NCBI GenBank assembly: GCA_022264855.1
Contig: JABYQU010000017.1
Location: 1-64,000 of the forward strand
Direction of reading: 5' to 3'
Source: Lenzites betulinus
Lineage: Eukaryota > Basidiomycota > Agaricomycetes > Polyporales > Polyporaceae
DNA: 64,000 nt
Under the pieces are notes generated by a model. That model was not told the origin of the DNA. It worked only from the letters and a program-made list of their open reading frames with translations, and did no database searches. Position 1 is the stretch's first letter. Each line of letters starts with the position of its first letter. A program made the position numbers and the translations under genes. Shown in pieces: positions 29,922 to 33,501 of this stretch.

Positions 29922-32900
29922 CTACTCCTCTTCCTCCTCCTCCTCCCCCTCGCTCTCCTTCGCATACTCCGACCCCGACCCCTCCGTGAACTCCGCCTCC
30001 GCGTCGTTCCGCACCCTCGCATTCCCCTCTGCAGCCGCGTCCGCGAGGTCGTCGACCCAACTCGCGAAGTACTCCGCGAAGGCGACTTCGCGGAGCTCGC
30101 GGTCGGCCCGCAACTCGTCACGGTATTCGTCCATCTCCCGCCGGAGTCCCTGGACCTCGCCGAGGAGCTGGAACAGCAGCTCGGAGTTGGTGAAACGCGC
30201 GTTGCGCGTCCACACCCGCTCCGTGCTGTCCATGACGGCGGACAAGGAGTCCTGCCGCCCCGGAACTCCGGAGGACGGTCCTGCACTCGGACCTTCGTCC
30301 GCAGGCGCGACCCCGGCCGCCACCTGCGCGACGCCCCCGGACCCCGACCCCGACGCGACCGGAACTCCGGCCCGCGCCTCCACCCTCTCCTTCCCGGCGT
30401 TTGAGGCCCGCATCCGCGGGGGCTGGCGCGTGACGCGGGGCTTCTTGGCGGCCGGCGCGTGTTGCGCGCCCTCGCACTTGAGCTTGCGCTGGGTGCAGAG
30501 GTCACAGGCCTTCTTGCGCCCGGACTCTGTCGGCGTGAAGGTGCACGCGAAGTTGTGCCGCGCGCAGTAATGGCACGGCACCCTGTAAACCTCCGTTAGC
30601 GCACGTCGGAACTCCGAATTCCGGACTTACATCGGGGCTCCGACATAGCCCGGGCCTTCCTCCTCAGCCGCCCGCTTCTTCCCCTTCTTCGTCGGGGTCT
30701 CCACGATGACGACCTCGTCGTCATCGACCACCTCCCGGGCCTTGCCCTTGCCCCACCAGATGTTGTACCCAAATAGTGTAACGAACCGTATAGCTCCCGT
30801 GACTGTTTTACATTACGAACCGTCGGGGTTCGTAATGTGTTATGGAGCTCCGGGCAGCGCTCCGGGACCTGCCTTATTAGGCAGGCAGCCCCGGGCAGGC
30901 CTGTTATCTCCCCAGAGATAACAGGTCTGCCCAGATCTAACTGATTACGTGCTTATCTTTCTAGATTACATCCTTAATCTCATCTCCCGTGCCTCCTCCC
31001 GCCCCAATAGCCTCGGAAAGCGGGCGCTTATTTCTCGTTCTGGTGCGCACTTCCTCTTCCTCCCTCCCCTGCTAGCTCGCTCATTTCTTATGCTATCTGG
31101 CTCTATCTAGGCGCGTTCAAAAGGTGTTTGAAAGGAGAATAATTGTATATAAGAATCAGGGCAAAAAGGTAATTACTCATCACTTGTATACAGTGCTACT
31201 AGTGCGCTCCAAGCGACGCAAAACAAGCGATAGCTCGCTCGTTTCGCGTCGCGCGGACGCGCGCAAGGGCTCCCTGGAATCGTGTGCTCAGCACGGTTCC
31301 AACGAGCCCTTGCGCGCGTGAATCGGCGCAGGCGTTCCTCAGATATGCGTGCTCCTCCCCGGGAGCAGCAGATCTGAGCACACCTGGGCCTTATCCCCTT
31401 CGTTTGTCGTCCCTTTGGAGGATCCTTGCTCACATATTCTCTAGCAATGTACATGGTATGTTTCCAGTACTGTTTAGGCTGCGCTATCAGCCAGGGAGGG
31501 TGCTGTATGGTCAGCCACAGGCACCCTCTCTGGCTGATACCTCCACCATCCTTCACTCAGTTTTTACACAAAGTATACCCCCAGAAAACGGTTCCAAATC
31601 GCTTTCTGATGGTATACTTTACTCAGGAACTTGTCCGCTTTCAGGATGACTAATGTTGTCTCTCTTACTGACCCTCTACCCCTCCCATACTCAGCCATAC
31701 ACCCCAATAGCGCAAATAACACACCCTGTACATCATCATATATAAGTCTAATATACTCTGTTCTTCCTCCTTCGGTGCTGGAGTCCTGTACAAGGTATCA
31801 AGATGAAATAAAGTGTTCTATACATCTGTACTCAATGATGCATTCATATCTCGACAACGATTTGCGATATCGACATACGGATTTTTGCGGTACGTCGGCG
31901 TTTCCTTTGTGAACAGAACGACCCATTTTTTATCCTTATCGGCGATGAACTCGAGCATGCAAAGGCTAATCAGTCCGAGAAAAGATCATGCTGTAGCCAT
32001 AGATCGGTGCATGCGATTGCAACACGAATTGTGACGTTGTATAGCCATATATTACACGGTTAGAACAAAGCTTGAACCATAATATTCGGCGAAGAAGTGA
32101 CGGAGATACATGCGAAACACCCGAGGGAGTCGAAATTATCTAACTGTACAGCTTGTGCTGTAAGACGCTGTAGCAGTGTAAGACGCGTCTTAGGGCCTCG
32201 GGCCAGTCCATATTAGATATGCCGCCAGTGTATTGCCCATTGCTCGCTCAATTCTACACCGATTGCCTTCGTGTTTTTTGCGTTCCATAGCTACGACTTA
32301 CTGCTATATTATGAACCCATTTGATTGGCAATATCCATATGCACAGGGCGGCGCTGGGGCGAGTTGCAATGCACACTGCAAGTCAAATATATTCTCAACT
32401 ACTGCTCAGGGCGCCCTAAAACATGTATGTCACATAGATGAGGATATAAGACATGTAATATGTATAGTGCCGCCGGTTTTGCATGACTAGGAGGAGGAGG
32501 AATGAGGTAGAAGGAGGAGTAGGAGCTGGATTTCATGTTTGCACTTGTGCGCTTTTTTTGGTATAGCATCGACCCAAAATGTCCCTGAATGAGTTCCAAT
32601 GTACTGTCAGTAGCTCTAGGTAGATACTGGGCTTTCTCCAACCAAAAACGAGCAGGGAATGCCCCAGGTGTGCTCAGACATGCTGCTCCCGGGGAGGAGG
32701 AGATATATCTCGGGTATTTCCCGGCCGATTTGCGCGCGCAAGGGCTCGTTGGAACGGCGAAGAACGCACCGTTCCAGGGATCCCCTGCGCGCGTCCGCGC
32801 GACGCGAAACGAGCGAGCTATCGCTCGTTCTGTGTCGCTTGGAGCGCCCCAATAGCACCTGGATCTATTAATGAGTACTTACCTGCGCTCCCTTATTCCT

Positions 32901-33501
32901 GTTTACGATTGTTCGCCTTTACAACGCCTTTTGAACGCGCCTAGATAGAGCCAGATAGCATGGGAAATGAGCAAGCTAGCAGGGAAGGGAGGAAGAGGAA
33001 GTGCGCACCAGAACGGGAAATAAGCGCCCGCTTTCCGAGGCTATTGGGGCGGGAGGAGGCACGGGAGATGAGATTAAGGATGTAATCTAGACAGATAAGC
33101 ACGTAATCAGTTAGATCTGGGCAGACCTGTTATCTCTGGGGAGATAACAGGCCTGCCCGGGGCTGCCTGCCTAATAAGGCAGGTCCCGGAGCGCTGCCCG
33201 GAGCTCCGTGACACATTACGAACCCCGACGGTTCGTAATGTAAAACAGTCACGGGAGCTATACGGTTCGTTACAGTATTTGGGTACAACAGCTGCTGCTT
33301 GCCCTTCCCGACCGCCTTCTCCACCTCCGCCTCGGACTTCCGCGCGGCCTCCGCCTCCGCCGCGGCCTTCGCCTCCGCCTCGGCTTTCGCCTCGGCCTCG
33401 GACTTCCGCTGGGCCTCCTCCAGCAGCGCCCTCTGCGCGTCGAGCTGCGCCTGCATGCGCGCGAGATCTTCCAGGGTGAGCGGGGTGTTCGAAGAAGACA
33501 T
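29922..33501 (-). CDS. Antisense zinc-cluster (Gal4-type) protein gene carried by the gypsy element, split by a nested element
   Basis: On the minus strand the ATG is at 33501. Coding runs 33501-33291, then is interrupted by the long-TIR element 30761-33290. It resumes at 30760-30631, then an intron 30630-30583 whose junction keeps the frame (Met-Val), then 30582-29922. The N-terminus is Glu/Ala/Arg-rich and coiled-coil-like (MQAQLDAQRALLEEAQR). A KKGKK-rich basic region precedes CHYCARHNFAC and CDLCTQRKLKC (30474-30575). Together these match the fungal Zn(II)2Cys6 binuclear cluster CX2CX6CX12CX2CX6C. A second helical segment (LLFQLLGEVQGLRREMDEYR) and an acidic tail end it at TAG. A TATAAA lies 53 bp upstream of the ATG. 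Zinc-cluster proteins are nuclear DNA binders of CGG sites. The role here is inferred and this copy is disrupted. Confidence 0.7.
30761..33290. mobile_element. 2.5-kb long-TIR (foldback) element nested in the gypsy element
   Basis: Arms of about 370 bp (30761-31128 and 32923-33290) are near-identical inverted copies starting TGTTGTACCCAAATA. Within them are further palindromes (ACATTACGAACC with GGTTCGTAATGT; TTATCTCC/GGAGATAA). A second inverted pair (about 31200-31400 with 32660-32855) lies inside. The 1.2-kb centre holds no recognisable transposase. Arm layout and several blocks match the element at 19464-20353, so both belong to one non-autonomous family. No clear target duplication is visible. 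Confidence 0.85.

What the first reader, a model, noticed from the sequence alone, without database searches (positions are those of the whole stretch)
29922..33501. A young gypsy retrotransposon carries an antisense, spliced Gal4-type zinc-cluster gene
Between pol and the 3' LTR the minus strand encodes a coiled-coil protein with an exact CX2CX6CX12CX2CX6C motif, an intron with a frame-preserving junction and its own TATA box. Gal4-type clusters are known as fungal transcription factors. A mobile element bringing its own would be a self-contained regulatory system, controlling its LTR or host genes. The function is inference; the motif, strand and intron are seen directly.
Basis: partly seen in the sequence, partly recalled or inferred. 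Interest (0 to 1): 0.88.

Follow-up and report, generated by a model that had tools for sequence, protein, structure and literature searches.

The report
Retrotransposon carrying a permuted Gal4-type gene
A jumping element in a wood-rotting fungus carries, back to front, a gene for a Gal4-like protein whose zinc-binding halves are in swapped order, and the element is packed with short DNA motifs that such a protein could recognise, so it may mark and switch on its own copies.

Summary
The window (contig C18 of Lenzites betulinus) holds a Ty3/gypsy chromovirus, 24008-34365. Between pol and the 3' LTR lies an antisense gene with a 48-nt intron and a six-cysteine cluster. In this copy exon 1 is split by a ~2.5-kb inverted-repeat insertion; a second copy (C27) has the gene uninterrupted. 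Divergence between the copies shows purifying selection (dN/dS 0.30, 0.15, 0.05 for three pieces).

Three additions. (1) The two halves of the Zn2Cys6 cluster are in swapped order. (2) pol holds 158 TCCG/CGGA against 96 expected after synonymous-codon shuffling (z 10.8; 28 other gypsy pols -2.0 to 2.7), and CCG triplets stand every 6-7 bp in parts of the LTRs. (3) A related gene, on two near-identical chromosome ends, also has 7-bp CCG arrays upstream and CGGAGTT repeats in its intron.

Best reading: a captured, self-targeting DNA-binding factor that recognises CGG-type motifs on its own family (a fungal analogue of Arabidopsis VANC and HTLV-1 HBZ). DNA binding, expression and direction of effect are inferred.

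The parts
24003..24007 (.). target-site duplication GAGAC, left
24008..24707 (+). 5' LTR (700 bp, TGTTACA...TAACA)
24017..24094 (+). CCG array in the outer LTR, triplets mostly 6-7 bp apart; second block near LTR 324-373
24248..24255 (+). TATAAATA of the sense promoter (LTR position 241); AGTTCAGATAT 33 nt further on is the likely RNA 5' end
   Evidence: RNA start inferred
24708..24725 (+). primer-binding site GTATATCTGAAC, complementary to the likely 5' end of the element's own RNA (self-priming type)
24739..26100 (+). gag (Retrotrans_gag; weak CCHC knuckle, below cut-off)
26076..29801 (+). pol: protease, RT, RNase H, integrase, weak chromodomain; no stop inside
29922..30582 (-). antisense gene, exon 2: permuted Zn2Cys6 cluster, linker, coiled coil, acidic tail; stop at 29922-29924
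30474..30575 (-). six-cysteine cluster; first triad resembles the second half of Zn_clus, second triad the first half
30583..30630 (-). intron, 48 nt (47 in C27), just before the zinc cluster; contains CGGAATTCGGAGTTCCG
30631..30755 (-). antisense gene, exon 1, 3' piece (end at the insertion approximate)
30756..33299 (.). insertion with ~657-nt terminal inverted repeats that splits exon 1 in this copy (ends approximate: the target is a TTGCCC repeat)
33300..33501 (-). antisense gene, exon 1, 5' piece with the ATG (33499-33501); charged Ala/Glu-rich stretch
33553..33559 (-). TATAAAG of the antisense promoter; CGG triplets just upstream; also present in C27
33652..33665 (+). polypurine-tract-like stretch before the 3' LTR
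   Evidence: read by eye
33666..34365 (+). 3' LTR; its outer CCG triplets (33675-33752) lie 116-191 bp upstream of the antisense TATA box
34366..34370 (.). target-site duplication GAGAC, right

Best explanation
The element has captured, in antisense between pol and the 3' LTR, a fungal gene for a coiled-coil DNA-binding protein with a half-swapped Zn2Cys6 cluster. The gene has its own promoter and an intron that survives retrotransposition because the genomic RNA carries it reversed. The protein most likely dimerises and binds the CGG/TCCG motifs that fill the LTRs and bodies of its own family, in trans. There it keeps the copies transcriptionally open (activation, or anti-silencing against CpG methylation) and regulates its own promoter, which lies beside the LTR array. 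Shown by sequence: anatomy, second uninterrupted copy, selection on the protein, swapped halves, motif saturation, arrays at one related gene type, CpG decay of old LTRs. Inferred: capture, expression, splicing, binding, self-targeting, positive sign.
For: Uninterrupted second copy; dN/dS 0.30 (exon 2), 0.15 and 0.05 (exon 1 pieces), with 0.06 for pol and 0.25 for gag. Intron length differs by 1 nt between copies, with a stop if unspliced. Zn_clus halves match in swapped order in the window and in the C10 relative; a profile of four members aligns to solved Leu3 (and AlcR) in two pieces in swapped order; 25 of 25 Foldseek matches of the domain model are Zn2Cys6 domains, none at E <= 0.001. TCCG and CGGA rank 1 and 2 of 256 tetramers in pol of both copies after synonymous shuffling; summed z 10.8 and 10.6, 28 controls -2.0 to 2.7. 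Both the motif and its reverse complement are in excess in pol (z 8.5 and 6.0; weaker for CGGA in gag, 1.7 and 2.1), as for duplex DNA rather than RNA recognition. CCG pairs exactly 7 bp apart in the LTRs: 13 (window) and 18 (C27) against 1.7 and 2.2 under uniform random placement. A (CGGANNT)3CGGA array has 11 matches in the genome, all in LTRs of this family (C27, C32, C65), 0 for the pattern read backwards. No run of 4 or more CCGN4 units in 160.8 kb of 28 other gypsy loci. The C10 and C6 relatives have such arrays upstream (17 units in C10, two runs of 6 in C6) and CGGAGTT repeats in the intron; the C57 relative has no run of 4 or more in 19.8 kb. In 5 of 7 related LTRs examined, CpGs decayed largely to TG/CA (36 of 65 in C42) while other C-to-T changes are fewer (11 of 196).
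Against: No RNA or binding data. Two full copies seen, one broken. The window's own LTRs have no match to the strict arrays (longest run 4 units, 5' LTR only). Antisense exon 2 itself is not clearly enriched (z 1.6 and 0.9), nor are two large ORFs of the C10 unit (TCCG z -0.8 and -1.2). C6 and C10 are near-identical and count as one case. TCCG/CGGA is kept better than other CG tetramers in pol (304 of 319 against 1650 of 1853) but not in gag (84 of 102 against 530 of 658); CCCG is kept about as well in pol (74 of 79). In the 5xCCGN4 search 9 of 14 regions (13 of 40 matches) have no known link; the backward control gave 5 matches. Two of 7 related LTRs show little CpG decay. Zn_clus scores 19.7, below the curated 21; relatives P0006 and P0008 give no Zn_clus match at E <= 1. 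The enrichment need not be due to this protein.
Confidence: 0.6

Rival explanations
1. The antisense protein is an LTR-bound autoregulator that represses sense transcription and limits copy number, as HBZ does for HTLV-1.
For: Two full copies seen in 37.4 Mb (best candidates only); the 3' LTR array sits beside the antisense promoter, which itself has CGG triplets; HBZ is antisense, spliced and lowers 5' LTR expression (PMC10186651, passages seen).
Against: Sites for LTR repression would not need to fill gag and pol; the excess reaches through both.
Confidence: 0.2
2. A captured host gene under selection, acting on host promoters or on nothing in particular; the TCCG richness is an unrelated quirk (slippage, mutation bias or RNA packaging signal).
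For: A relative sits among ordinary-looking frames on C57 (by eye) and one in Trametes versicolor on a 5.1-Mb contig; tandem slippage of CCGACCT units is visible in LTRs; exon 2 and the C10 ORFs are not enriched.
Against: Slippage does not explain a synonymous-level excess through pol, with TCCG on all three frames (34, 33, 31; CGGA 12, 32, 16); an RNA signal would enrich one strand only, but TCCG and CGGA are both in excess in pol; the subtelomeric relatives share the 7-bp array and the CGGAGTT unit.
Confidence: 0.2
3. A fortuitous antisense frame in a GC-rich retrotransposon.
For: Sense and antisense frames are both long in this GC-rich DNA; in exon 1 one opposite frame fits nearly as well (0.41, and 0.05 with one stop).
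Against: Third-position bias in the antisense frame of all three pieces; omega 0.30 against 0.64-1.39 for the other five frames in exon 2; homologues in other species, some annotated, and the intron at the same place in the C6, C10 and C57 genes.
Confidence: 0.02

Closest known systems
Gal4-type Zn2Cys6 binuclear cluster proteins (Pfam PF00172; Leu3, Gal4, Ppr1, Put3, Hap1)
   Same: Six cysteines in two CX2CX6C triads, basic residues in the RKxKC triad, coiled coil behind the cluster, domain model matching only such folds.
   Different: The halves are in swapped order, so the recognition-type triad comes second; the gene lies on a retrotransposon; no other Pfam match in exon 2 at E <= 1.
VANC anti-silencing proteins of Arabidopsis VANDAL elements (PMC5735166, passages seen)
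   Same: TE-encoded protein; short motif repeated at high density, mainly in one orientation, across its own family, spread by tandem repeats, also in introns.
   Different: VANC is on DNA transposons of plants and its motif is mainly non-coding; here the motif also fills gag and pol. Binding and anti-silencing not shown here. No sequence comparison with VANC was made.
Antisense ORFs between pol and 3' LTR of plant Ty3 elements (Retand TRP28, Grande gene23, RIRE2; PMC11963269 and PMC7264820, passages seen)
   Same: Same place and strand; TRP28 is predicted to bind DNA, Grande GENE23 is nuclear and has its own upstream promoter.
   Different: Plants, different domain (TRP28 or none known); the words 'intron' and 'transcription factor' have 0 hits in either main text, 'zinc finger' 0 in the first and 'zinc' 0 in the second.
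HBZ of HTLV-1 (PMC10186651, passages seen)
   Same: Antisense, spliced, nuclear regulator.
   Different: bZIP domain, expressed from the 3' LTR, animal retrovirus; motif saturation of HTLV-1 was not examined here.

Membership tests
Ty3/gypsy chromovirus | LTRs with TSD; gag; pol in order protease-RT-RNase H-integrase with chromodomain | tested here: met
   chromodomain 22.7 bits, below its curated 25.1
Ty3/gypsy, self-priming (Tf1/sushi-like) | primer-binding site complementary to the 5' end of the element's own RNA | tested here: met
   11-nt complement found at the expected places; RNA start inferred; the Tf1 parallel is recalled
Gal4-type Zn2Cys6 (PF00172) | CX2CX6CX5-12CX2CX6-8C (spacing recalled), six cysteines | tested here: met
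   (C27: exon 1 0 Cys, exon 2 6 Cys); relatives P0004, P0007, P0008 have a seventh Cys further on (read)
Gal4-type Zn2Cys6 (PF00172) | recognition-type half (CDxCxxRKxKC) first, PCxxCxxxxxxC half second | tested here: not met
   halves swapped
Gal4-type Zn2Cys6 (PF00172) | Pfam gathering score 21 bits | tested here: not met
   19.7 window, 19.8 C27, 17.3 C10 and C6 exon 2, 14.8 P0002, 20.8 P0007; no match for P0001, P0006, P0008 at E <= 1; P0003 alone passes with 22.4
Gal4-type Zn2Cys6 (PF00172) | fold of solved members | tested here: inconclusive
Gal4-type Zn2Cys6 (PF00172) | binds CGG triplets | not testable with these tools
   only candidate target motifs seen
Plant antisense aORF elements (Retand) | antisense ORF between pol and 3' LTR | tested here: met
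Plant antisense aORF elements (Retand) | TRP28 domain (PF04195) | tested here: not met
   exon 2 and the 5' piece of exon 1 give no such match at E <= 1; the short 3' piece was not scanned
VANC-like anti-silencing system | family-specific motif at high density, mainly one orientation, tandem arrays | tested here: met
   (LTR CCG 35, CGG 16); strict arrays lacking in the window's own LTRs
VANC-like anti-silencing system | protein binds the motif and removes silencing in trans | not testable with these tools
   no binding or methylation data; CpG decay of old LTRs only suggests methylation

The most novel reading that the evidence does not exclude
A fungal retrotransposon family has built a self-recognition code: a captured permuted Zn2Cys6 protein and a family-wide CGG motif, written even into gag and pol by synonymous choice, that lets the protein find and un-silence its own copies; the same protein family and motif serve a second, subtelomeric unit at chromosome ends.
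Probability: 0.35. Interest if true: 0.93.

Novelty: new variant of a known kind. Interest (0 to 1): 0.82.

Why it matters
It would be the first case known to me of an LTR retrotransposon with a zinc-cluster regulator, of a permuted zinc cluster, and of an anti-silencing-like self-motif in fungi; the searches of the held library showed none (two returned nothing, of the others only the top 10-15 of 26 to 422 papers were listed). It makes the old question of what antisense genes of retroelements do directly testable, since protein and candidate binding sites are both in hand and short. A motif written into coding sequence is a measurable sign of selection on an element as a target.

Tried and rejected
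Chance antisense frame: rejected by codon-position pattern and homologues. RNA-level motif: disfavoured, because both TCCG and CGGA are in excess in pol. Codon usage as the whole cause: rejected by synonymous shuffling, which keeps codon usage. My first run of that control (13 loci; ranks of 4 loci) read minus-strand control loci on the wrong strand; one search repeats it with the right strand for all 28 controls, and only that is used for controls (several are near-duplicates of one another).
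Full report
WHERE IT IS. The window is contig C18 (1-64000) of a 37.4-Mb genome. Three proteins found by search lie on contigs whose lengths equal those of C6, C10 and C57 (12520, 10399, 296734) and are named Lenzites betulinus, so the host is that polypore.

THE ELEMENT. LTRs of 700 bp (24008-24707, 33666-34365) differ at 4 of 703 aligned columns and are flanked by GAGAC. gag and pol are open; pol has protease, RT, RNase H, integrase and a weak chromodomain. A TATA box at LTR position 241 is followed 33 nt on by AGTTCAGATAT, whose 11-nt complement stands behind the 5' LTR: a self-priming type. 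A second full copy lies at C27:455347-463278, flanked by CGCTG, with LTRs 99.86% alike over 730 bp. pol of the two copies is 98% alike in protein; the other 42 of 44 listed matches are at most 54% (37 of 233 candidates scored). The LTR query has 32 matched stretches, many of them lone or partial.

THE ANTISENSE GENE. Exon 2 (29922-30582, minus) codes for the cluster, a linker, a long helix of coiled-coil type (residues 131-200; pLDDT 87-98 by blocks up to residue 190) and an acidic tail. The intron is 48 nt here and 47 in C27; without splicing exon 1 ends at TAA. In C27 exon 1 has no cysteine and exon 2 six. In the window, exon 1 is split by an insertion with 657-nt inverted repeats, whose arm has 64 listed matches in the genome. 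In C27 it is uninterrupted. Pieces were compared apart: differences at codon positions 1/2/3 are 11/13/24 (exon 2), 2/4/15 (exon 1, 5' piece) and 1/1/10 (exon 1, 3' piece); dN/dS 0.30, 0.15, 0.05. In exon 2 the other five frames give 0.64-1.39. In exon 1 an opposite frame comes close (0.41, and 0.05 with one stop), so exon 2 carries the test (p = 8e-5). The coil part differs at 3 of 92 residues, the zinc part at 6 of 46, the linker at 7 of 62. The 164-bp stretch between ATG and LTR, with TATAAAG, is alike by eye in both copies apart from the last ~25 bp before the ATG and one small patch, whereas the LTRs are 87% alike.

SWAPPED HALVES. Scanned apart, the first triad matches Zn_clus positions 18-34 (E 0.006) and the second 1-15 (E 0.0013); in the C10 relative 17-38 (0.0022) and 1-15 (0.0007). 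A profile of four members hits only solved Zn2Cys6 proteins (8 of 8 rows: Leu3, AlcR, Gal4, Lac9; E 0.0009 to 3), and Leu3 aligns in two pieces in swapped order. The domain model (mean pLDDT 76.2) matches only Zn2Cys6 domains (25 of 25), weakly (best E 0.53). As the fold is pseudo-symmetric (recalled), the swap rests on sequence, not on the fold.

RELATIVES. Eleven proteins were found in three searches: Trametes gibbosa P0002 (82%), two unnamed (P0001 95%, P0003 53%), Lenzites C6, C10 and C57 (P0004-P0006), Pilatotrama (P0007), Trametes versicolor (P0008) and three unnamed ones like P0008 that lack the cluster as given (P0009-P0011). The C57 gene lies among ordinary-looking frames (phosphatase-like and MYND-finger-like by eye, no family scan) and has an intron at the same place. 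P0006 and P0008 have one residue more in the second triad and no Zn_clus match at E <= 1. C6 and C10 are near-identical chromosome ends with TTAGGG repeats; their unit also carries a large ORF without Pfam match at E <= 1, 12 matches in the genome, itself included, on C3, C6, C10, C48, C57 and C75. So a host gene family seems to have entered mobile or subtelomeric units; the direction of transfer is inferred.

THE MOTIF. In the LTR, CCG triplets stand 6-7 bp apart in blocks; pairs at exactly 7 bp number 13 (window) and 18 (C27) against 1.7 and 2.2 under uniform random placement. TCCG is 2.8 times its dinucleotide expectation in pol, 0.66-1.77 in 28 other gypsy pols read on the contig strand. 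With amino acids and codon usage kept, pol has 158 TCCG+CGGA against 95.8 (z 10.8), C27 161 against 97.4 (z 10.6), gag z 4.1 and 4.7; the 28 controls lie between -2.0 and 2.7. TCCG falls evenly on the three frames (34, 33, 31), CGGA less so (12, 32, 16). Antisense exon 2 is not clearly enriched (z 1.6 and 0.9). The pattern of five CCG at 7 bp has 40 matches in 14 regions; 27 matches in 5 regions belong to this LTR family (C27 twice, C32) or to the C6/C10 genes; 13 matches in 9 regions have no known link, three of these regions evenly spaced on C28; the backward control has 5 matches. (CGGANNT)3CGGA has 11 matches, all in LTRs of this family. The window's own LTRs match neither strict pattern; their longest run is 4 units. 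Upstream of the C10 gene 17 CCG units run in step, in C6 two runs of 6, and both introns hold CGGAGTT repeats; CGGAGTT is the reverse complement of AACTCCG, the 7-mer most over-represented in the gypsy element (58 against 1.1, two copies and both strands). The two large ORFs tested in the C10 unit are not enriched, so those coding parts do not share the saturation seen in the gypsy element.

SILENCING. Compared with the C27 LTR, five of seven related LTRs fetched kept 20-29 of 64-65 CpGs, with 31-42 turned to TG/CA, while 11-32 of 192-196 other cytosines became T; two (C65, C32) kept 50 of 63 and 60 of 65. Such decay is what CpG methylation leaves (established knowledge); the arrays are rich in CpG.

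READING. One outer LTR array lies upstream of the sense promoter in the 5' LTR and, in the 3' LTR, 116-191 bp upstream of the antisense TATA box. A factor binding it could serve both. Sites throughout the body fit a mark-and-open role, as for VANC (PMC5735166, passages), better than promoter binding alone. The plant antisense ORFs (PMC11963269, PMC7264820, passages) and HBZ (PMC10186651, passages) show that the anatomy is not unique; the zinc cluster, its swapped order and the motif written into coding sequence are what is new here.

Noticed in passing
window 30756-33299: Insertion with long terminal inverted repeats (657 nt, 88%), belonging to a repeat family with many paired matches in the genome; likely a non-autonomous DNA transposon.
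   Followed up: partly
window 20535-23089: Frames that read by eye like a Ty1/copia polyprotein (integrase and RT motifs), broken into several pieces, just upstream of the gypsy element.
   Followed up: no
window 47192-49948 (L032): A second gypsy pol (40% identity) on the plus strand, with a near-equal match on C95.
   Followed up: no
L008 (C10) 3700-8560 and L010/L011 (C6): Subtelomeric unit with large ORFs lacking Pfam matches above cut-off, related copies on C3, C48, C57 and C75, next to a permuted zinc-cluster gene on C6 and C10 and TTAGGG ends.
   Followed up: partly
L045 (C65:799300-801170): Two LTRs of this family starting about 1.1 kb apart with short tandem-like DNA between them and no room for gag or pol.
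   Followed up: no
C28:47971, 58287, 68592: CCG arrays spaced about 10.3 kb apart, perhaps a tandem repeat such as rDNA (guess, not checked).
   Followed up: no
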